64,000 nt of DNA from Caballeronia udeis (GTDB lineage: Bacteria; Pseudomonadota; Gammaproteobacteria; Burkholderiales; Burkholderiaceae): positions 124,001 to 188,000 of the forward strand of contig NZ_FCOK02000002.1 in the NCBI RefSeq assembly GCF_001544555.2, given 5' to 3'. Numbering within the stretch: the first letter of the stretch is position 1; each line of letters opens with the position of its first letter. The notes under the pieces were generated by a model, which had not been told where the DNA came from, ran no database searches, and worked only from the letters and a program-made list of their open reading frames with translations. The position numbers and the translations under genes are program-made. Shown here in pieces: positions 11,475-21,134 of this stretch.

Positions 11475-13952
11475 ATGACAACTCGCGCGAACAGCTGTGT
11501 CATCGAAAGCGATGCGGTCGCATCATTCCCGGACATACTGTCCACCGAAGCGGTGGATTTCATCGCGGCGCTGCATCGCGAATTCGAGCAATCGCGTCAG
11601 CACGTTCTGCACTATCGCAAGGAGCGATCCGACCATCGGCTGCATGGAGGCAGCTTCGAATTCCTATCGAGCACCGCGGGCATACGCAACGATCCGGACT
11701 GGCGCGTGCGCGTAGCCCCCGACGATCTGATCGACCGGCGCGTGGAGATCGCAGGTCCGGCGGAGAACCGGAAGATCGTCATCAATGCGCTCAACGCTCA
11801 TGCTCAGGTGTGGGTGGCCGATCTGGAAGACGCGATGTCACCCACCTGGCACAACGCTTTAGCGAGCCAGCGCAACCTGATGGATGCGGTCAAAGGGGAC
11901 ATTGCCTACCTTGATCCGAGCGGCAAGCAATACAGGCTCGAAGGCAGCACGACGGCGATCGTGGTCAGGCCACGCGGCTGGCATTTGTCCGAGCAGCATG
12001 TGCTTGTTGATGGACGCGCCGTATCGGCTAGTCTGGTCGATTTCGGCCTGTATTTCTTTCATTGTGCCCGCAGGCAAATCGAGCGCGGCAGCGGCCCCTA
12101 TTTCTATTTGCCCAAGCTGGAGAACCACGTCGATGCGCAGCTCTGGAACAACGTATTCGAATTCGCGCAGGACTGGGTTGGCATCCCACGGGGCAGCATC
12201 CGGGCGACAGTGCTTATCGAGCACATTGGCGCTGCTTTCGAAATGGACGAGATACTGCATGCTCTCGGCCCTCACGCCGCTGGACTGACGGCTGGACGCT
12301 GGGATTATCTGTTCAGTATTGCGAAGGAGTTTAGGCGCCGAGCGGACTTCGTCTTTCCAGACCGTGCGGAACTGACGATGGGGCTGCCGTTCATGCGCGC
12401 CTATACCGAGTTGCTGATCCGTACCTGCCATCGACGCGGCACGCACGCCCTGGGCGGCGTCGCTACGCAGATTCCGGACCGGCACGACATGCAAGCTCGA
12501 AACCGTGCGGTCGAGGCCGTGCGCCGCGACAAGGAGCGCGAGGCTGTCGAGGGTTTCGACGGCACCTGGGTGGTTCACCCCGACCTGGTCCCGGTGTGTC
12601 ACGCCGCCTTTGACCGGGTACTTTGCGGGCGAGCGCATCAGATCAGCCGCTTGCACGGCAAGGTCGAGACAACGGCAGCGGACCTGATGGCCGCCGATCG
12701 TCTTGATGGTCAAATCACCGAACACGGCTTGCGGTCCAACATCGCGGTGTCGATCCGCTACCTGGAAGCGTGGTTGCGCGGTCATGGATCGGTCAGGCTG
12801 TTCGGCCTGATGGAAGGCACAGCGACTGTCGAGATTGCCCGTTCGCAGATCTGGCAGTGGTTGCACCACGGCGTGCATTTGCATGATGGCCGCAGGGTGA
12901 CGCGCGAACTGGTGCGCGCCATGGTCGCCGACGAGATAGATCGATATCGCGCAGAATCAACGCAAACGCAGACCGGACACGACATTGAACGGGCCAGGGC
13001 TTTGTTTGAAGAAGTGGCCATGAACGAGGACTTTCCTGAATTCCTGACCATCCCGGGTTATGTGCTGTTATGTCCACCGCACGTGCTTGATACGGACCCC
13101 GCCCAATCGACATCGGCCAGGGAAACCGTGTTGGCGCTCCCATGCAGCAGCGGCATGTTCACGCATTTGCAGCTTAAGCCACGCGTTGTGTTTTCCTTTG
13201 GTTTCATGGGCTGGTCAGCGTGGTTGATCGAACACGCCGTCTCGCATGCGGCGTTGATCCGGGACCATGCGACCGGGTTCGTTCCCATCGGTCTCGAGAT
13301 TGCTTATCTGCATCCATCGACGTTCTTCGATTGCGAGTCGCTGAGCATCACCACGCGGATCAGGACCTGGAACCCGAAACGATTCCATACCCTGCAGGAC
13401 GTGGAGGTGCGGCTTGCGAACGAACATGGTGTGTCGGTCGCTCGCGTGTTCATGCAGGAGGTGTGCGTTCGGATCCAGTCGATTGAAACACTTGCGGCAG
13501 CGCCGGGACGGGTGGCCGGAGATCTCGCGAAGCTGTTGCTCGACTGTCCCGACGATATCGACGAGCGCCCCGTGCTGCTCAATCGCGGCGTCAAACGAGT
13601 GCCGGAGAACGCCGAAGCCATTGCTGAGTACCGGCATGAGTTCGTTGTCCATCGTCACGGATGCGAAGTGGCCGATCAATGGTATTCCGAGCATGTATGC
13701 GATTACATCGGCGATAGCCGCGAGGCCATGGTGTTCCTGCTACTGGACAAACATCCGGAACTGCTCGCGGGTCTCGCTCAGCGTATAGAGCGTTTGAGTA
13801 TCGGTTTGCGCCGGCCCTTCATGCTTTTCGACCGAGGCCAGGTCGTGACCACGGCTTATCGCGTGGGCGCCGAAATTCATTTCGTCCATCAGTTGCTTAC
13901 CGCATCCGGTGCCGACGCCGGTGATGCGGCCGAAGTGTTCCTGTCGCCGTGA
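11475..13952 (+). CDS. Malate synthase A homologue fused to a C-terminal hotdog-like region
   Basis: An 825-residue protein. Residues 1 to about 532 align along their full length with AceB-type malate synthase: RPRGWHLSEQHV, GPYFYLPKLENH, TVLIEH (Glu249), AGRWDYLFS (Asp277, metal ligand), FDGTWVVHP and SQIWQWLHHG, ending FLTIPGYVLL where AceB ends. The catalytic-base Asp of the MEDAAT motif (Asp447 in E. coli AceB) is replaced: the sequence reads MEGTAT, with Gly448. Residues about 533-825 are an added region whose strand-helix pattern (for example FHTLQDVEVRLANE and RPFMLFDRGQVVTTAY) suggests one or two hotdog folds, as in acyl thioesterases and dehydratases. It is the first gene of the operon. 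An ordinary glyoxylate-shunt role is unlikely. A GTG at 11457 is an alternative start. Confidence 0.82.
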   Translation: MTTRANSCVIESDAVASFPDILSTEAVDFIAALHREFEQSRQHVLHYRKERSDHRLHGGSFEFLSSTAGIRNDPDWRVRVAPDDLIDRRVEIAGPAENRKIVINALNAHAQVWVADLEDAMSPTWHNALASQRNLMDAVKGDIAYLDPSGKQYRLEGSTTAIVVRPRGWHLSEQHVLVDGRAVSASLVDFGLYFFHCARRQIERGSGPYFYLPKLENHVDAQLWNNVFEFAQDWVGIPRGSIRATVLIEHIGAAFEMDEILHALGPHAAGLTAGRWDYLFSIAKEFRRRADFVFPDRAELTMGLPFMRAYTELLIRTCHRRGTHALGGVATQIPDRHDMQARNRAVEAVRRDKEREAVEGFDGTWVVHPDLVPVCHAAFDRVLCGRAHQISRLHGKVETTAADLMAADRLDGQITEHGLRSNIAVSIRYLEAWLRGHGSVRLFGLMEGTATVEIARSQIWQWLHHGVHLHDGRRVTRELVRAMVADEIDRYRAESTQTQTGHDIERARALFEEVAMNEDFPEFLTIPGYVLLCPPHVLDTDPAQSTSARETVLALPCSSGMFTHLQLKPRVVFSFGFMGWSAWLIEHAVSHAALIRDHATGFVPIGLEIAYLHPSTFFDCESLSITTRIRTWNPKRFHTLQDVEVRLANEHGVSVARVFMQEVCVRIQSIETLAAAPGRVAGDLAKLLLDCPDDIDERPVLLNRGVKRVPENAEAIAEYRHEFVVHRHGCEVADQWYSEHVCDYIGDSREAMVFLLLDKHPELLAGLAQRIERLSIGLRRPFMLFDRGQVVTTAYRVGAEIHFVHQLLTASGADAGDAAEVFLSP

Positions 13953-13986
13953 CATCGACGTGCATCGACGCCAAAAGAGGTTGACC

Positions 13987-14250
13987 ATGACGTTCCTGTT
14001 CTCCGGTTCCCTGCTCCGGTATGTCGGTTATCGGCGGCAGATTATTTATGAAGCAAGCACGATCGACGCGGCCTTGCGCGTGTTGTTCGCCGAGTATCCG
14101 GAACTTGAAGGATTGCTAATGAATCCGGATAAGACGCTGAAACGTACGATGCGTCTCGCGATCAACAACGAAGTGATTCACAGCGATCTGACCCGGCCGC
14201 TCTCGGCAGGCGATTCGGTCGAGATCATGACCGCTATCTCCGGCGGTTAA
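13987..14250 (+). CDS. MoaD/ThiS-like sulfur carrier protein
   Basis: An 87-residue beta-grasp protein ending in TAISGG. A C-terminal Gly-Gly is adenylated by a ThiF/MoeB-type E1 enzyme and converted to a thiocarboxylate that donates sulfur. The matching E1-rhodanese fusion is the last gene of the same operon (19850-20980). Because Gly-Gly is already at the end, no JAMM protease is needed to expose it, and none is present. A GAGG ribosome site precedes the ATG. The gene lies among acyl-processing genes rather than molybdopterin or thiamine genes, which points to a dedicated biosynthetic carrier. Confidence 0.85.
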   Translation: MTFLFSGSLLRYVGYRRQIIYEASTIDAALRVLFAEYPELEGLLMNPDKTLKRTMRLAINNEVIHSDLTRPLSAGDSVEIMTAISGG

Positions 14251-14314
14251 CCCACTGACTCGCGACTGACTCGCAAGCCTGCCGCAGCCACGGCCAACGA
14301 AAGGAGAATGCTCA

Positions 14315-14554
14315 ATGTCCCTCGATACCCGGCTTCGCTCGGTATTCAACACGGTGCTGGAACTGGACAAGACGCTGCCCGATTCGGCACTGCGTTATCA
14401 AGAGACGCCAGGCTGGGATTCGCTCGGCGCGGTGTTGCTGATCTCGTCCATCGAAGAGGAGTTCAAGGTTGAGATCAATACCGGTCAGGCGTTGAACATG
14501 GATACGTTCAGCGGCGCGGCGCAGTTGCTCCGCGAGCTCGGGGTGCGGGATTGA
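14315..14554 (+). CDS. Acyl carrier protein
   Basis: A 79-residue carrier protein with the phosphopantetheine site GWDSLGAV (Ser36) and the following hydrophobic helix LLISSIEEEFKVEI. A strong AAGGAG lies before the ATG. It probably carries the acyl intermediate handled by the LuxE-like, InhA-like and FabG-like enzymes encoded next. It is distinct from housekeeping AcpP, whose site is normally DSLDTVEL. Confidence 0.93.
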   Translation: MSLDTRLRSVFNTVLELDKTLPDSALRYQETPGWDSLGAVLLISSIEEEFKVEINTGQALNMDTFSGAAQLLRELGVRD

Positions 14555-14567
14555 GCGGGCAATCGTC

Positions 14568-15626
14568 ATGAACGGTTCGCCGACAAGCCAGAGCGCGCGC
14601 GAGTCCGCGCTGTTGCCGCAGATGGTCGAACTGATCGAGCATCATCGGCGCGCGTGTCCTGCGTACGCTCGTGTGCTCGATGCAATCGGTCACTCGTCAG
14701 GCCGCCGCTATGCGCAAACCCGGGAACTGCCGTGGCTGCCTGTGCGCCTTTTCAAGGAGCACGCGCTGATCAGCACCGGCCGCGAACAAGTGGCGGTGCT
14801 GACGTCGTCCGGTACGACCGGTGCGAACGTCAGCCGGATCGCGCTGGACCGTGACGCCGCTGAGCATCAGCGAGGTTTGCTCACTGCGACGCTGGCAACG
14901 GTGCTCGGTCCCCGACGTCTGCCGTTGCTCATTGTCGACTCGCCGTCGGCGGTGCGCCGCGAACGCTCGACCATACGCGGAGCGACCGTGCTCGGCGTGA
15001 TGAACGTCGGTCGCGAGCATGCCTTTGCGCTGGATGACGAGCAGGGCATCGACGCCACCGCCGTCGAGAATTTTCTGCAACGCCACGGCCACGCAACGTT
15101 CCTGATCTTCGGCTTCACGTCTCTCGTCTGGACACGGTTCCATGCATTCGCACGATCACGCGGATTCGATCTGGCCAACGCGGTCCTGTTGCACACAGGC
15201 GGCTGGAAGAAGCTCGCTGACCTGGCGGTATCGCCGCGAGAATTCCGCGCGAGCTTTCTCGAAGCAACCGGCCTTCGACGATGCCACAACTTCTACGGAA
15301 TGGTCGAGCAGGGCGGCACGATCCATATTGAATCGGCATCGGGCGACGGCTTTTATTGCCCCGATTTCGCCGATGTCATCATCCGTGATCCGCAGACCTG
15401 GGAGGAGGCCCCGGTCGGCGCGGAAGGGGTTATCGAAGTGTTGAGCGCCGCGCCGCGTGCGCATCCGGGGCATGTGTTGCTGACCGAAGACCGGGGCGTG
15501 GTGCATGGCATCGACGATGGTGAGTGGCCGGGCAAACGCTTCTCCGTGCTCGGCAGGCTCGCGCGCGCCGAACCTCGGGGATGCGCGGACACACTGCCCG
15601 AAACCGCCTACGGAGCGCAATCATGA
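14568..15626 (+). CDS. LuxE-family acyl-protein synthetase (adenylate-forming)
   Basis: A 352-residue protein of the LuxE/PaaK-like group. The adenylate-binding loop is SSGTTGANVSRIALD near residue 83, LPWLPVRLFKEHAL typical of LuxE precedes it, and HNFYGMVEQGGTIH plus the VLLTEDRG region follow. In luminous bacteria LuxE activates a fatty acid as acyl-AMP and passes it to LuxC for reduction to an aldehyde; a LuxC homologue is encoded at 18587-19824. Its stop overlaps the next start as ATGA. Substrate unknown. Confidence 0.88.
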   Translation: MNGSPTSQSARESALLPQMVELIEHHRRACPAYARVLDAIGHSSGRRYAQTRELPWLPVRLFKEHALISTGREQVAVLTSSGTTGANVSRIALDRDAAEHQRGLLTATLATVLGPRRLPLLIVDSPSAVRRERSTIRGATVLGVMNVGREHAFALDDEQGIDATAVENFLQRHGHATFLIFGFTSLVWTRFHAFARSRGFDLANAVLLHTGGWKKLADLAVSPREFRASFLEATGLRRCHNFYGMVEQGGTIHIESASGDGFYCPDFADVIIRDPQTWEEAPVGAEGVIEVLSAAPRAHPGHVLLTEDRGVVHGIDDGEWPGKRFSVLGRLARAEPRGCADTLPETAYGAQS

Positions 15627-16390
15627 ATGGTTTGCTCGAAGGGCGGTGTTTGCTTATCACCGGCGTCATCAACCATGCATCGATCGCATTTGCGGTCGCA
15701 AAGCTCGCTCAGGAGCAGGGCGCGGAGATCGTGCTCACTGGCCACGGCCGGCTGCACATGGTCGAGGACGCGGCTAGCCGCTTGCCGCGCCCGCCGCCGG
15801 TTGTCGAACTCGATGTCACGCAAAACGAACAACTCGCCACGCTGGCCGAGCGCCTGCGGGTTCATGTGCCGCGGCTGGACGGTGTGCTGCACTCGATCGC
15901 GTTTGCGCCGCGTGGGGCCGTTAGCGGGGAGTTCCTGGCGACGAGCTGGGCCGATGTATCGACGACCTTGCAGGTATCGGCGTATTCGCTGCAGGCGCTG
16001 ACCAACGCGGTGCTGCCATTGATGGACGCAGGAGGGTCGATCGTGGGCCTGGATTTCGATGCCTCCATGACATGGCCCGCCTACGACTGGATGGGCGTCG
16101 CCAAGGCGGCACTGGAATCGAGCGCGCGTTACCTCTCTCGCGATCTGGGCGCGCGCGGGATACGCGTCAATCTGGTCGCGGCAGGTCCTTTGCGTACCGC
16201 CGCCTCTCACGGCGAGCCGCGTTTCACCGATATCGCTGCCGCCTGGCGAGCCCGCGCGCCACTCGGCTGGAATCCCTCCGACGCCAGCGGCGTCGCCCGC
16301 ACGTGCGTGGCGTTGCTGTCGGACTGGCTCCCTGCCACCACCGGCGAAATCGTGCATGCCGATGGTGGTTTCCACACGATAGGAATCTGA
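15623..16390 (+). CDS. InhA-type enoyl-ACP reductase
   Basis: A 255-residue SDR of the FabI/InhA branch. The N-terminus (GLLEGRCLLITGVINHASIA) has the family's altered nucleotide loop. The active site is InhA-like: Phe145 in GLDFDAS, Tyr154 and Lys161 in YDWMGVAKAALES, at the spacing of InhA Phe149, Tyr158 and Lys165. NLVAAGPLRT and LLSDWLPATTGEI also read like the mycobacterial enzyme rather than E. coli FabI. It would reduce a 2-enoyl thioester with NADH. It starts inside the LuxE-like stop codon (ATGA) and lies 24 bases before a FabG-like gene. The actinobacterial likeness is recalled from known sequences, not searched. Confidence 0.88.
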   Translation: MNGLLEGRCLLITGVINHASIAFAVAKLAQEQGAEIVLTGHGRLHMVEDAASRLPRPPPVVELDVTQNEQLATLAERLRVHVPRLDGVLHSIAFAPRGAVSGEFLATSWADVSTTLQVSAYSLQALTNAVLPLMDAGGSIVGLDFDASMTWPAYDWMGVAKAALESSARYLSRDLGARGIRVNLVAAGPLRTAASHGEPRFTDIAAAWRARAPLGWNPSDASGVARTCVALLSDWLPATTGEIVHADGGFHTIGI

Positions 16391-16414
16391 CATGGCGCGG
16401 TTCCGGGGGTATCG

Positions 16415-17167
16415 ATGAATACGGCGAGTTTCAGCAATCGTATTGCCGTGGTGATCGGCGGCACGCGTGGCATTGGTCAGGCGAGTGCGCGGCTGCTGGC
16501 CGCGGCGGGAGCGACCGTGATACTCACCGGCACCGATCAGGCGAAAGCCGAACGCGAGGCGCAGCAGCTTGCTGCCGAGTACGGTGTGAGCGCAACGGGG
16601 CGGGAACTGGATCTAAGCGACTACGCGTCGATCAGCGTGACCATCAAGTCGATTGCCGCCGAGCACGGCGCGATCGACGCGCTGGTGCTCAGCGCGGGTC
16701 TCATGCAGAGCACGCCGCTCGGAATGACCCCGGAGCCGGTTGCACGCCATCTGCTCGACGTCAATCTGCTGGGTGCTATCGAAGTGCTGCAGGCGAGCGC
16801 GAAAGTGATGATGCGGCGGCGTCGCGGCGCGATTGTCTTGCTCGCATCCATAGCGGGCGAGCGCGGTGCGCCGGGCCAGGCGGTCTACGCGGCGACCAAG
16901 GCCGGCATTGCAGCGCTGGCGCGCTCGGCGGCCAAGGAACTGGGACCACTCGGCATTCGGGTGAATGCGGTGGCGCCCGGTTTGATCGATACCGATCTGC
17001 TGGCGAATCTCCCCAACGATGTCATCGCCACGCGTCGCGCCCAGACGGCGTTGCGCAGGCTTGGCACAGCGACTGAGGTGGCGACGACAATCCGCTTCCT
17101 GCTCAGCGACGAAGCGTCTTTTATCACCGGGCAAGTGCTGGGCGTAGATGGAGGCCTGATCTTATGA
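16415..17167 (+). CDS. FabG-type 3-oxoacyl-ACP reductase (SDR)
   Basis: A 250-residue classical SDR: GGTRGIG nucleotide loop at residues 14-20, SAGLM in place of the usual NNAG, a Ser in LLASIAGE, and Tyr-Lys in YAATKAG, with GVDGGLIL at the end. It probably reduces a 3-oxoacyl chain on the operon's acyl carrier protein. Its stop overlaps the ATG of the AMP-binding gene (ATGA), so translation is coupled. Substrate length and type cannot be judged. Confidence 0.88.
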   Translation: MNTASFSNRIAVVIGGTRGIGQASARLLAAAGATVILTGTDQAKAEREAQQLAAEYGVSATGRELDLSDYASISVTIKSIAAEHGAIDALVLSAGLMQSTPLGMTPEPVARHLLDVNLLGAIEVLQASAKVMMRRRRGAIVLLASIAGERGAPGQAVYAATKAGIAALARSAAKELGPLGIRVNAVAPGLIDTDLLANLPNDVIATRRAQTALRRLGTATEVATTIRFLLSDEASFITGQVLGVDGGLIL

Positions 17168-18590
17168 ACACATTCGGCGTCAATGCTTGCCTGATCGATG
17201 CGGCCAGCGGCCTGAGCTTGCGCGGGCGCGAGTTCGCCGCGCGAATTCACGCGATGGAAGACGAACTGCATGCGCTGCCGCCCGGCCTGCTCTTTTTACC
17301 CGCGCCATGCCATGGACCGTCGATACCGTGTGCCGCTATCTCGCCGCGTTTCGCCAGGGCCGGGCGCTCGCGTTGCTTGATCCGGGCATGGAGCCGGACA
17401 CGCTGACGGAACTGATTGCGCGATTCGAACCGGCGGGCCTGTGGCAGCCTGGAATCGAAACGCCTGCGCCCGAGGGTTATCGCCATGTCGCGCATGGGTG
17501 GATCAGGCAGGCGAGCGCGGTGGCCGTGCATCCCGATGTGGCCTTGCTGCTGACCACCTCCGGCTCGACCGGCGCGGCCCGCATGGTGCGCCTGTCACGG
17601 CAGGGTGTACTCGCCAACGCCGCTGCGATCGTGCGAGCGCTGGACATCACCGGCGCGGAAATCGCACCGGCCAGTCTGCCGTTCTACCTGGGCTACGGCT
17701 TGTCGGTGCTCAACAGCCATCTGCTGGCGGGCGCTACTGTGGTGGTGAATGCGTATCCGGTGATCGGCCCGGATTTCTGGGCATGTGTCGACCACTACGG
17801 AGCGACTTCCTTCGCTGCGGTGTCGCATACCTATGAGCTGCTCGCGCGTTTGCGATGGACACCGTCGGCACATCCCGGCCTGCGCACGATGACACAATCC
17901 GGCAGTCGCATGCGGCCTGAACTGATTGCACAACTTGTCCGTGGCATCGGCCGGTCGGAAGGACGTTTCTATCTCATGTACGGGCAAACGGAAGCAACGG
18001 CCCGGATGGCGGTTCTGCCGGCGCACCGCATTGGCGAGAAGTGCGGTTCGGTCGGCGTGGCCGTGCCGGGCTCAGCGTTGTCTATTCGTATTGAATCCGG
18101 TGAGGAGACCCGTGAGCCGGACGTCGTCGGTGAAGTTATCTTCCGCGGACCAGGCGTCATGATGGGTTACGCCGATACCGCCGCCGATCTCGCCCGTGGC
18201 GACGATTCCCGCGGCGTGCTGCACACAGGGGATATCGGGCGCTTCGACCAGGAGGGGTATCTCTATCTCGAGGGCCGTCTCAAGCGGATTGCCAAGCTAT
18301 TCGGACAACGTATCAACCTGGATGCAGTCGAACGCGTGGCTATTGAAGCGGGTGCTGAAGGCGTGACGATCGCGGTTTCGCGCAACGACGAAGCGATCGT
18401 GTTGTGGTGCGAAGGCGAGGCCGAAGCGGCGCGGCTGGAACTTATTTCGCGCAGCGTCGCGGAACGACTCGGCGTGAACCGGCATGGTGTTGTTGCACGC
18501 GCAATCGATAAATTGCCGCTGCTGCGCAACGGCAAGATCGATTACCGGGCGCTGGTTCGTGCGGCCATTGAAGACAAGGCACCGACATGA
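17164..18590 (+). pseudogene. AMP-binding acyl ligase with a frameshift near its 5' end
   Basis: The first frame starts at the ATG at 17164 (MNTFGVNACLIDAASG) and reads to about 17300; the rest of the protein continues in the -1 frame from about 17298 (PWTVDTVCRYLAAFRQG) to 18590. Restoring one T in the CTTTTTA run at 17291-17297 gives a continuous reading frame of 475 residues, normal for a small ligase. The remainder is well kept: P-loop TSGSTGAARM, YGQTEATARM, LHTGDIGRF, and the catalytic Lys in LRNGKIDY. It would activate an acid as acyl-AMP. A product from ATG 17307 would lack the N-terminus and has no ribosome site. It could be a real lesion or a homopolymer error. Confidence 0.8.
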
Positions 18591-19824
18591 TCCGGCCGCT
18601 GTTCCCGATGGGCGCGCCGCTTGAAGCATCGGCGTTGCTTGAGTCGATGCTTCAAGCGACGCGCGACCCAGAGTCCGGCCTGGCTCTGCAAGTCGGCGAT
18701 GAACGCATGCTCGATTTCCTCGATGCAGTCGGCCAGCGCCTGCGTGTACCGGCGCTGGCACGACGCCATCCGGAACTGGGACCACTCGGCGCGTACCTTC
18801 GTCGCGGTCACCTTGGTTCGGAACTGGCGCGGCTTGATACCGGGGATCGCACGCTGCGTTTTCCTCAAGGGCTGGTTTTTCACATCGCGCCCGGCAATGC
18901 CGATACGGTGTTCGTCTACTCCTGGGCCTTGTCCGCGTTGGCCGGAAATCGCAATGTCGTGCGGGTATCGGATCGGGGTGGAGAAGCCACCGAGGCCGTG
19001 CTCGCCGCGTTGGCGCAGAGTCTGGATGAGGCCGATCCCGTGGTGGCGAAGACGCAGCGGATCGTGAGCTACGACCATCGTGACGAGGCTGCGACGTCGG
19101 CACTTTCGGCCGCCTGTGACTTGCGAGTGTTGTGAGGCGGCGATCGCGCCATTGACGATATCCGTCATTCACCGCTGCGGCCATCGGCGCGGGATCTCAC
19201 GTTTGCGAACCGGTCTTCGTTTGCGGTGATCCGCGCGACGGCTTTTCTGCTGGCCGACGCGCCTCAGAGAAAACAGGCGGTAGATGCATTTCATTCGGAT
19301 GCCTACTTATTTGGTCAGCAGCATGCGCGTCTCCCGGAACGATTTTCTGGATTGGCACGGAACCGGATGTAGCGGACGCGCAAGTTGCGTTCGCGGCATT
19401 GCTGGTCCAAACGGTAGAGGTCCGGGGGCCGCGCACAGACGCTGCGATGGCTATCCAGAAACATGTTGCCGCTTACGGTCTGGCTGCGGAAGGTGTCGCC
19501 GACAACGTGCGTTTTATCGGCAACGAGATCGCTTTCGTGCGGCTCGCCACGCCTGTCCGCCTCCCGCGCCGCTGGCTTGGAACCGGGACGTTTCCGCATC
19601 TGCGCCTTGAATCGCTCGACGAGCTGATACCCCTGTTGCAACGTCAGGATCAGACGCTGACGTATTTCGGTTTCACTGTCGACGAGATGGTTTCGTTCGC
19701 CCGGAAAGCATCCAGACGGGGCATCGATCGCATCATGCCGATGGGACGTGGGCTCGAATTCTCCACGATGTGGGACGGCTACGACCTCCTGCGCGAGTTC
19801 ACCCGCCTGGTCACGGTGAGTTGA
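18587..19824 (+). pseudogene. LuxC-like acyl reductase with a nonsense codon and a frameshift
   Basis: Reading begins at ATG 18587 (MIRPLFPMGAPLEAS), overlapping the ligase stop, and follows the LuxC family: LVFHIAPGNADTVFVYSW, then DLRVL. At 19133-19135 a TGA replaces the Trp codon of the conserved WGGD. The same frame continues GGDRAIDDIRHSPLRPSARD to LFGQQ near 19320. There one base is missing, and the active-site stretch ACASPGTIFWIG and the C-terminus continue in the next frame to 19824. Adding one base gives 413 codons, normal for the family. LuxC reduces a fatty-acyl thioester to an aldehyde; as printed, no functional enzyme can be made. Confidence 0.88.
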
Positions 19825-19849
19825 TTCTGATTCGCTCATAAGGAGCACG

Positions 19850-20980
19850 ATGATGATTAAGGCGATAGTCGAACTGTCCCCGGAACAGGCGCACGAACGC
19901 CAGCGGTCGGGCGCATTGATGGTGGACGTGCGTGAGGACGGCGAGCGCGCGGCCGGAATGGCCGAGGGGGCGATGGGGGTCAGCAAGGGCCGGCTGGAGG
20001 CTGAACCGGGGGCATGGTTGCCTGAGCTTGACGGTGAGATCCTGCTGATCTGCGGGGTGGGCGCACGTTCGCTGCAGTGTGCGAGGTTGCTGCAATCGCG
20101 GGGTTATACACACGTTGCCTCGGTCAGCGGTGGCACTACACGATGGAAAGCAGCCGGTTTGCCGATGAGCGCGGCTACCGCCGACGCTGATTTTCTCGAA
20201 CGATATTCCCGCCACTTACGCCTCGCCGAAGTGGGACTGGACGGCCAACGAAAGCTCGCGGCCGCGCGGGTGGCGCTGATCAGCGCGGGCGGGCTGGGTT
20301 CGCCGGCGGCGCTCTACCTGGCTGCGGCAGGGATCGGCCATATCACGCTTATCGACGATGATCTCGTCGATCGCAGCAATCTGCAGCGCCAGGTGCTGCA
20401 TCGCGATGTCGATATCGGCACGCCCAAGGTCGAGTCCGGTTGCCGGACCTTGGCGGCGCTCAATCCTCATGTGGTGATCGAACCGCAACGCACGCGGTTG
20501 CTCGCGAGTAATGTCGAGGCGTTGATTCGCGGGCACGATGTCGTGATCGACGGCTCCGACAATTTTTCCACGCGCTATCTGGCCAACGATGCGTGCGTGC
20601 GGCTGGGTCTGCCGATGGTCTACGGCGCGGTGCAAGGTTTCGAAGGGCAGGTCAGCGTGTTCTGGCCGGCGCGGGAGGGTGGCAGTTGCTATCGGTGCCT
20701 GTTTCCGGAACCGCCGCCGGCGGCATTCGCGCCAAACTGCGCCGAAGCGGGTGTGCTTGGCGTGCTGCCGGGGGTGATCGGGTTGTTGCAGGCGACCGAG
20801 GCGATCAAGTTGATTTTGGGTATTGGTGAGTCGCTGTCCGGTACCTTGCTGCAGTTCGACGCGCTGGGAATGCGGTTTAACCGCTTGCGCTTGCTGCGAG
20901 ACCCCGCTTGCCCACGTTGCGGAAATGGTGTGACGGCTGGCGATTATGTGGATGTGCCGACGGCTTGCGGGGTGGGGTGA
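19850..20980 (+). CDS. Rhodanese-ThiF/MoeB fusion (sulfur carrier activating enzyme)
   Basis: A 376-residue two-domain protein. Residues 1 to about 110 are a rhodanese with active-site Cys68 in CGVGARS. Residues about 122-376 are an E1-like adenylyltransferase: SAGGLGSP nucleotide loop, DDDLVDRSNLQRQ, the Asp of DGSDNFSTRY, and a zinc site CYRC plus CPRC. It should adenylate the C-terminal Gly-Gly of the sulfur carrier at 13987-14250 and supply persulfide sulfur. The domain order is the reverse of MoeZ/MOCS3, where ThiF comes first. An AAGGAGC ribosome site lies before the ATG. It is the last gene of the operon. Confidence 0.9.
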   Translation: MMIKAIVELSPEQAHERQRSGALMVDVREDGERAAGMAEGAMGVSKGRLEAEPGAWLPELDGEILLICGVGARSLQCARLLQSRGYTHVASVSGGTTRWKAAGLPMSAATADADFLERYSRHLRLAEVGLDGQRKLAAARVALISAGGLGSPAALYLAAAGIGHITLIDDDLVDRSNLQRQVLHRDVDIGTPKVESGCRTLAALNPHVVIEPQRTRLLASNVEALIRGHDVVIDGSDNFSTRYLANDACVRLGLPMVYGAVQGFEGQVSVFWPAREGGSCYRCLFPEPPPAAFAPNCAEAGVLGVLPGVIGLLQATEAIKLILGIGESLSGTLLQFDALGMRFNRLRLLRDPACPRCGNGVTAGDYVDVPTACGVG

Positions 20981-21058: not shown

Positions 21059-21134
21059 TGGTAGGCCGTACGGGATTCGAACCTGTGACCAACGGATTAA
21101 AAGTCCGCTGCTCTACCAGCTGAGCTAACGACCC
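21059..21134 (-). tRNA. tRNA-Lys (anticodon UUU)
   Basis: A 76-nt tRNA with encoded CCA. The acceptor arms GGGTCGT and ACGGCCT pair (with one G-U), the D arm is AGCTCAGCTGGTAGAGC, the anticodon loop CTTTTAA carries TTT, and the T loop is GGTTCGAATCC. The body closely resembles E. coli tRNA-Lys. Confidence 0.97.

What the first reader, a model, noticed from the sequence alone, without database searches (positions are those of the whole stretch)
11475..20980. Nine-gene operon combining acyl-chain enzymes with protein-thiocarboxylate sulfur transfer
Seen: a malate synthase homologue, a MoaD/ThiS-like carrier ending in Gly-Gly, an acyl carrier protein, LuxE-like, InhA-like, FabG-like, AMP-ligase, LuxC-like and rhodanese-ThiF genes, all on one strand with gaps of at most 64 bases and four ATGA overlaps. 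Known: carrier plus E1-rhodanese pairs supply sulfur in thiamine, molybdopterin and some natural products such as thioquinolobactin; LuxE and LuxC turn acids into aldehydes. Inference: the operon makes a small acyl-derived metabolite with a sulfur or thiocarboxylate step. I know of no described pathway with this set.
Basis: partly seen in the sequence, partly recalled or inferred. Interest (0 to 1): 0.9.

Follow-up and report, generated by a model that had tools for sequence, protein, structure and literature searches.

The report
Sulfur-carrier operon with baseless malate synthase
A rare set of nine bacterial genes travels between genomes as one unit and appears to build a small sulfur-containing molecule, using a sulfur-carrier protein together with a malate synthase relative that has lost the residue its normal chemistry needs.

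Summary
The nine genes are real, on one strand and tightly packed, but in this strain two look broken: the AMP-ligase changes frame, and the LuxC-like gene has an in-frame stop and a frame change. Six other Burkholderiaceae genomes carry all nine in the same order; five show no break, one has its E1-rhodanese gene interrupted. The seven copies lie at four unrelated sites; all nine genes are under purifying selection (dN/dS 0.07-0.27). The first gene is no ordinary malate synthase: its catalytic-base aspartate is glycine in 7 of 7 copies. In 299 family genomes the usual motif is found in 224, the glycine motif only in the 3 operon carriers. It also carries a ~277-residue, probably hotdog (thioesterase-like) extension. 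Homologues of that extension lie by a ThiS carrier in 17 of 18 loci, in Actinobacteria, myxobacteria, Yersinia, Pseudomonas and Burkholderiaceae. Best reading: a horizontally moving pathway to a small sulfur metabolite with ThiS and the extension as sulfur-transfer core. Product and chemistry are unproven.

The parts
11475..13952 (+). Malate-synthase-fold protein with hotdog-like extension (MSh), 825 aa
   Evidence: Pfam MS_TIM-barrel/MS_C/MS_N; TIGR01344 682.7 bits, cut-off 594.5; best solved relative 3cux
12816..12818 (+). Codon for Gly448 where malate synthases have the catalytic-base Asp (E. coli MSA Asp447)
   Evidence: Alignment (6 copies), motif scan (7 copies), pattern counts; role of the Asp from passages of PMC3832036 and PMC3112382
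13119..13949 (+). Extension, 277 aa, probably hotdog (4HBT/YbgC-type) at least in its first half, with CEVADQW motif
   Evidence: A3 profile hits YbaW 1njk E=1.2e-6, positions 41-138; 4HBT_2 in 7 of 14 family members but not in the window member itself
13987..14250 (+). ThiS/MoaD-like sulfur carrier, 87 aa, C-terminal Gly-Gly
   Evidence: Pfam ThiS 42 bits; alignments (GG in 15 of 15 rows)
14315..14554 (+). Acyl carrier protein, 79 aa, DSL motif
   Evidence: Pfam PP-binding; motif in 6 of 6 copies checked
14568..15626 (+). LuxE-like acyl-protein synthetase, 352 aa
   Evidence: Pfam LuxE 107.7 bits; solved LuxE 7xc6 E=1.2e-7
15623..16390 (+). FabI/InhA-like enoyl reductase (SDR1), Y-x6-K present; ATGA overlap with LuxE
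   Evidence: NCBIfam NF005908 384 bits, cut-off 299; motif in 6 of 6 copies checked
16415..17167 (+). FabG-like SDR2, Ser-Tyr-Lys pattern present
   Evidence: Pfam adh_short_C2; motif in 6 of 6 copies checked
17164..18590 (+). AMP-forming ligase, frame change near 17307 in this copy (open frame 17187-18590)
   Evidence: Pfam AMP-binding; compared with L036 gene
18587..19824 (+). LuxC-like acyl reductase, broken in this copy (stop at 19133-19135, later frame change)
   Evidence: Pfam LuxC on the first piece, no family on the last; 408-aa relative in L036 hits LuxC; breaks located
19850..20980 (+). Rhodanese-ThiF (E1) fusion, 376 aa; rhodanese-loop Cys and two CxxC motifs present
   Evidence: Pfam ThiF 260.9 bits and Rhodanese 41.1 bits; 1jw9 MoeB E=5.3e-59; motifs

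Best explanation
The operon encodes a self-contained, horizontally moving pathway to a small sulfur-containing metabolite. SHOWN by sequence: sulfur-relay parts (rhodanese, E1, carrier ending Gly-Gly), an ACP with a ligase, two SDR reductases, a LuxE/LuxC pair, and a malate-synthase fold lacking its C-H base and fused to a hotdog-like domain whose relatives accompany ThiS in other phyla. INFERRED: (1) the rhodanese domain takes sulfane sulfur and the E1 domain adenylates the carrier, giving ThiS-COSH. (2) The AMP-ligase loads a small carboxylic (perhaps 2-oxo) acid onto the ACP, and the FabG- and FabI-like enzymes reduce it. (3) The malate-synthase barrel keeps the Mg and 2-oxo-acid site but cannot make an acetyl enolate in the usual way, so it takes a nucleophile that needs no C-H base: most boldly the carrier's sulfur, otherwise a decarboxylating thioester. 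(4) The hotdog-like domain, working with ThiS, cleaves or transfers the thioester between carrier and product, releasing the sulfur compound. (5) LuxE and LuxC reduce an acyl group to an aldehyde. In the window strain the LuxC and ligase steps are probably lost.
For: Nine genes colinear in 7 genomes at four chromosomal sites, flank homology in 4 of 21 pairs; dN/dS 0.07-0.27 in 27 comparisons among 4 copies and 0.07-0.21 among window, L020 and L036. Asp-to-Gly in 7 of 7 copies, while the residues I take for Mg ligands and oxo-acid contacts (E249, D277, R165/R167, E118/D119; mapped by motif, recalled) are kept in the 6 copies aligned. ThiS next to the extension's homologues, or one gene away, in 17 of 18 loci; their divergences correlate (r=0.83, 11 loci). 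Own thiamine and Moco genes elsewhere; an AceB with the usual Asp on C60.
Against: No product, expression or enzyme data. The hotdog assignment is weak for the window protein itself: alone it has no 4HBT hit in Pfam, only a sub-threshold MNIO match (19 against 25 bits) and a sub-threshold YbgC match (17.7 against 141.35 bits); the better evidence is the family profile, first half only. The ThiS-extension correlation partly reflects shared ancestry. The ligase/LuxE/LuxC set also occurs without sulfur genes. Two of seven copies are broken, and the window's E1 nucleotide loop differs (SAGGLGS). My expression for a LuxC catalytic Cys matched none of 5 copies. No transporter or regulator among the nine. 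No structure could be predicted.
Confidence: 0.45

Rival explanations
1. Thiocarboxylic-acid synthesis: the ligase/ACP activates a carboxylate and the hotdog-like domain, in the role PtmU4 plays in thioplatensimycin, moves sulfur from ThiS-COSH onto the acyl group. The malate-synthase domain still joins carbon, for example with a decarboxylating malonyl thioester.
For: Ligase plus carrier machinery is the thioacid logic of PMC6006322 (passages); one hotdog-superfamily protein, AmcE, is a decarboxylase (PMC10698177, passages).
Against: No CoA-transferase family among the nine proteins (Pfam); LuxE/LuxC reduction has no obvious place in such a route.
Confidence: 0.25
2. A surface-glycan acyl cassette, as in flagellin-glycosylation islands, that gained sulfur genes.
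For: ACP, FabG, AMP-ligase, LuxE and LuxC occur together in Aeromonas and enterobacterial flagellin islands (PMC7874193, PMC4875605; passages), beside annotated glycosyltransferases in L017 and, by eye, glycan genes in L016, L022 and L025.
Against: None of the nine genes is a glycosyltransferase or sugar enzyme, and the copies lie at four unrelated sites; gene order differs from the glycan cassette.
Confidence: 0.12
3. ThiS acts as a ubiquitin-like protein tag (SAMP-like) rather than a sulfur donor.
For: Weak matches to moaD_arch and SAMP1, both below cut-off.
Against: Rhodanese fused to the E1, and pairing with small-molecule acyl enzymes.
Confidence: 0.05
4. Duplicate thiamine or molybdopterin supply.
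For: E1 scores over the MoeB cut-off NF006444 (541.2 against 449 bits).
Against: Housekeeping thiS-thiG, moaD-moaE, moaA-moaD and moeB-like loci found elsewhere.
Confidence: 0.02

Closest known systems
Malate synthase A (TIGR01344; E. coli 3cuz, 3cux)
   Same: Homology over about 530 residues, over the curated cut-off; most active-site residues kept
   Different: Catalytic-base Asp is Gly in 7 of 7 copies; 81 positions, this one included, are fixed differently from 4 housekeeping enzymes; ~277-residue C-terminal extension
Thioacid cassette PtmA3/PtmU4 with sulfur-carrier machinery (PMC6006322, passages)
   Same: Acid-activating ligase and a sulfur carrier with a GG end
   Different: No type III CoA-transferase in the operon; ACP, SDRs, LuxE/LuxC and base-less malate synthase added
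ACP-FabG-AMP ligase-LuxE-LuxC set of flagellin-glycosylation islands (PMC7874193, PMC4875605, passages)
   Same: Same five families
   Different: Different gene order, no glycan genes in the operon, four extra genes including the sulfur relay
Stand-alone ThiS-extension clusters, e.g. S. clavuligerus pSCL4 (L032), Paraliomyxa (L044), Yersinia vastinensis (L043), found here
   Same: ThiS beside the same domain family; an E1 in 2 of 11 (L043, L045)
   Different: Domain not fused; an acyl-CoA-dehydrogenase homologue in 9 of 11; no match to the operon's ACP, LuxE or LuxC in L041-L049 or L031
Cispentacin ligase AmcH (PMC10698177, passages)
   Same: The 2-oxoglutaryl-ACP ligase model is the AMP-ligase's fourth-best NCBIfam hit (106.2 bits, cut-off 370)
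   Different: Far below cut-off; no ketosynthase or cyclization factor here

Membership tests
Malate synthase A | Score over curated model cut-off | tested here: met
   682.7 against 594.5 bits
Malate synthase A | Mg ligands and active-site Arg conserved | tested here: met
   E249, D277, R165/R167, E118, D119 invariant in 6 operon copies and the housekeeping enzyme; their roles mapped by motif from recall
Malate synthase A | Catalytic-base Asp in MED-x-AT motif | tested here: not met
   Gly448 in 7 of 7 operon copies (alignment of 6)
Malate synthase A | Makes malate from acetyl-CoA and glyoxylate | not testable with these tools
   needs an enzyme assay
[quoted passage not shown]
   no CoA-transferase family among the nine proteins; rest of the genome not searched
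PtmA3/PtmU4 thioacid cassette | Sulfur carrier ending Gly-Gly | tested here: met
PtmA3/PtmU4 thioacid cassette | PtmA3-type acyl-CoA synthetase | tested here: inconclusive
   AMP-binding ligase present; the 25 NCBIfam hits shown (of 83) are other subfamilies, all below cut-off
Flagellin-island acyl cassette | ACP, FabG, AMP-ligase, LuxE, LuxC together | tested here: met
   order differs
Flagellin-island acyl cassette | Neighbouring glycosyltransferase or pse genes | tested here: inconclusive
   none among the nine and no shared flanks between the four sites; flanking genes were not scanned by family, and L020/L036 have an unassigned 381-aa gene upstream
Thiamine ThiS-ThiG or Moco MoaD-MoaE | Neighbouring thiG or moaE; only such pair in genome | tested here: not met
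   those neighbours belong to other loci, C96 and C7
4HBT hotdog superfamily | Sequence similarity to 4HBT/YbgC | tested here: inconclusive
   family profile hits YbaW E=1.2e-6 for positions 41-138 only; window member alone has no 4HBT hit; no structure available

The most novel reading that the evidence does not exclude
The malate-synthase fold has been turned into a carbon-sulfur bond-forming enzyme: without its C-H base it lets the ThiS thiocarboxylate, not an acetyl enolate, attack a Mg-bound 2-oxo acid, and the fused hotdog-like domain then cuts the carrier off. ThiS plus this domain family would be a general sulfur-insertion module used across phyla with different electrophile-making partners (base-less malate synthase here, acyl-CoA-dehydrogenase homologues elsewhere).
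Probability: 0.18. Interest if true: 0.92.

Novelty: new variant of a known kind. Interest (0 to 1): 0.72.

Why it matters
It joins two fields, protein-thiocarboxylate sulfur transfer and acyl-carrier chemistry, through a protein that a curated model would name malate synthase A. The glycine switch is a sharp, testable claim. The pairing of ThiS with this domain family gives a marker for finding further sulfur pathways in several phyla.

Tried and rejected
Paulomycin link: the cluster table lists a malate synthase (pau45) and a ThiF, but pau45 is 85% identical to an AceB and the authors found no ThiS gene in the cluster (PMC4425429, passages), so dropped. hhalign of the extension profile against the window's own YbgC-like protein was uninformative (1.2% probability). 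The sub-threshold MNIO match in 6 of 14 extension members (2 of 14) is taken as chance, unproven. Motif expressions that failed: both LuxC expressions matched 0 of 5; HTGD in the ligase matched 2 of 5; C-x-EAGV was absent in L039 only; GxGGxGS was absent in the window only. Composition, tRNA and plasmid ThiS searches gave no clue to the product. Literature: searches listed no paper on the nine-gene set; two searches returned 0 papers; (181 papers, 20 listed) ThiS also matches the word this, and (37 papers, 10 listed) I saw listings only. One search gave the papers on the five-gene glycan set. The library holds open-licence papers only.

Limits of the counts. One search scanned with one degenerate motif, so the 14 loci are a lower bound. 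Searches used patterns that differ also at a second codon (Val against Ala) and allow no mismatch: a glycine form with Ala there would be missed, and 75 of 299 genomes, G047 among them, lack the usual pattern. One search saw about 1 to 9 kb of flank per side. Some dS values are near saturation. Dropped as repeats: L027-L029, L053, L062, L064-L066; L030 is the same place as L031 and L021 as L040; L063 (G311) is taken to be L036's genome, not verified. L049 was kept and is the 1 of 18 without ThiS; its gene frame is unclear. One search used 4 of 7 copies; one search used 6 of 7 (5 for ligase and LuxC).
Full report
WHAT IS THERE. The window is G000:C2:124001-188000 of a 10.05-Mb genome. Its genus group includes G047, whose contig C25 has the same length (564136) as the Burkholderia sp. 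Leaf177 contig NZ_LMPF01000025.1, and G311, which I take to be Caballeronia sp. dw_19; so it is probably Caballeronia or close kin (inference). Nine genes lie on the + strand from 11475 to 20980 with gaps of at most 64 bases and three ATGA overlaps. Pfam confirms every family. Motifs of the ACP, both SDRs, the rhodanese loop and the E1 CxxC pairs are present in the 6 copies checked (meanings of motifs recalled).

TWO GENES LOOK BROKEN IN THIS COPY. Against the Caballeronia sp. dw_19 copy (L036), the ligase matches in two frames meeting near 17307, and LuxC runs into a TGA at 19133-19135 and then changes frame. dN/dS of the pieces is still low (0.15-0.17 against L036), so the breaks are recent or are sequencing errors. 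In G250 (L020) the E1-rhodanese gene is split by a stretch with two IS21-like reading frames (IS21 label by eye). Thus 2 of 7 copies are broken, in different genes.

CO-CONSERVATION. All nine genes occur in the same order in six further genomes: L020 (G250), L036 Caballeronia sp. dw_19, L037 Paraburkholderia haematera, L038 P. fungorum, L039 P. tropica, L040 Burkholderia sp. Leaf177. In L036-L040 each gene gives one unbroken match, without stops in L036, L037, L039 and L040 and as listed open frames in L038. Of 21 pairs of copies, 4 share flanking sequence within the stretches held (window-L020, window-L036, L020-L036, L037-L038): four chromosomal sites. dN/dS between L036 and L037, L039, L040 is 0.07-0.27 for all nine genes, 27 comparisons. 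The unit is rare: the extension is found in 4 of 58 genomes of the genus, 4 of 299 of the family (3 operons plus G083) and 1 of 398, the window's own, in a phylum sample.

THE MALATE SYNTHASE IS NOT A NORMAL ONE. It scores over the malate synthase A cut-off, but the catalytic-base aspartate is Gly448 in all seven copies (alignment of six). Passages of PMC3112382 identify Asp447 of E. coli MSA as the base position; passages of PMC3832036 say the residue is conserved across malate synthases and the CitE-like superfamily (Glu in one group) and that Asp-to-Asn in E. coli MSG abolishes activity. In 299 family genomes the usual DNA motif is found in 224 and the glycine motif in 3, the three operon carriers of that sample (the patterns also differ at a second codon). 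The strain has another malate synthase with the usual Asp on C60. Between 4 housekeeping enzymes and 7 operon proteins, 81 positions are fixed differently, Asp-to-Gly448 and Thr-to-His250 among them.

THE EXTENSION IS A PARTNER OF ThiS. The family profile matches YbaW/YbgC thioesterases in its first half (1njk E=1.2e-6); the window member alone does not reach a 4HBT hit in Pfam. One genome scan with this domain returned 14 loci; with the window, L020, G083 (L031) and S. clavuligerus (L032) this makes 18. ThiS lies next to it or one gene away in 17 of 18; L049 is the exception. An E1 is adjacent in 9 of 18: the 7 operons (interrupted in L020), L043 (with rhodanese domain) and L045. Outside the operons an acyl-CoA-dehydrogenase homologue is adjacent in 9 of 11; L041 has the domain and ThiS without it. 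ThiS and extension divergences correlate (r=0.83, 11 loci, permutation p=0.0001; r=0.86 with 15), which common descent alone can also produce.

THE ACYL SET. Nine loci with a LuxE relative but outside this operon (L016-L019 and L022-L026) have ligase and LuxC relatives beside it in 9 of 9 and an FabG-like relative in 8 of 9 (not L024); none had an MSh, ThiS or E1-rhodanese match. Passages of two papers describe the set in flagellin islands, product unknown. LuxE relatives occur in 14 of 299 family genomes. So the operon looks like two modules joined: a glycan-type acyl cassette and a ThiS-extension-E1 sulfur module, plus a FabI-like enzyme.

HOW IT MAY WORK. See Best explanation. Steps 1 and 2 follow from general knowledge of the families; steps 3 to 5 are inference. 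One shared oddity supports step 3: the usual partner elsewhere, the acyl-CoA-dehydrogenase homologue, also lacks a glutamate at the two usual base positions in the 9 aligned proteins (read by eye; those positions are recalled). Both partners of ThiS and this domain would then be acyl-thioester enzymes that gave up alpha-proton chemistry.

HOUSEKEEPING CHECK. thiO-thiS-thiG on C96, moaD with moaE on C7, moaA with moaD on C21, a MoeB-like gene on C47 and a TcdA-like gene at C2:167664 (names read by eye from the translations). The operon pair is not the strain's only carrier system.

VERDICT. A real, rare, mobile nine-gene pathway; a new variant of sulfur-carrier biosynthesis. Its product is unknown, and this strain's copy is probably defective.

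Noticed in passing
L031 10625-18555 and L044 5885-14187: G083 and the myxobacterium Paraliomyxa share a larger cluster around ThiS-ACAD-extension: methyltransferase, small tautomerase-like protein, TrmO-like protein, PF10118 metal hydrolase and a HemN-like radical SAM enzyme (Pfam for three L031 proteins; other labels by eye).
   Followed up: partly
L042-L048, L031, L032 (alignment A5): Acyl-CoA-dehydrogenase homologues beside ThiS and the extension lack glutamate at both usual catalytic positions (by eye, positions recalled), paralleling the Asp-to-Gly change in the operon's malate synthase.
   Followed up: partly
L033 5235-11423 and L035 5308-9355: Distant relatives of this ThiS in Mycetohabitans and Pantoea plasmids sit beside an E1 and YcaO-TfuA genes (annotation).
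   Followed up: no
window 19850-20980: The nucleotide loop of the E1 reads SAGGLGS here but GAGGLGS in the five other copies checked, perhaps another sign of decay.
   Followed up: no
window 21059-21134: A tRNA-Lys gene (- strand) lies 78 bases past the operon's end; whether it served as an insertion site was not tested.
   Followed up: no
L020 13757-14902 and L036 6922-8067: A 381-residue gene lies directly upstream of the operon in two copies; no such open frame is listed at that place in the window.
   Followed up: no
L016 2639-17390: Nonomuraea gerenzanensis has the ACP-SDR-ligase-LuxE-LuxC set (LuxE 58.6% identical) beside pseudaminic-acid-like genes and glycosyltransferases (labels by eye).
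   Followed up: no
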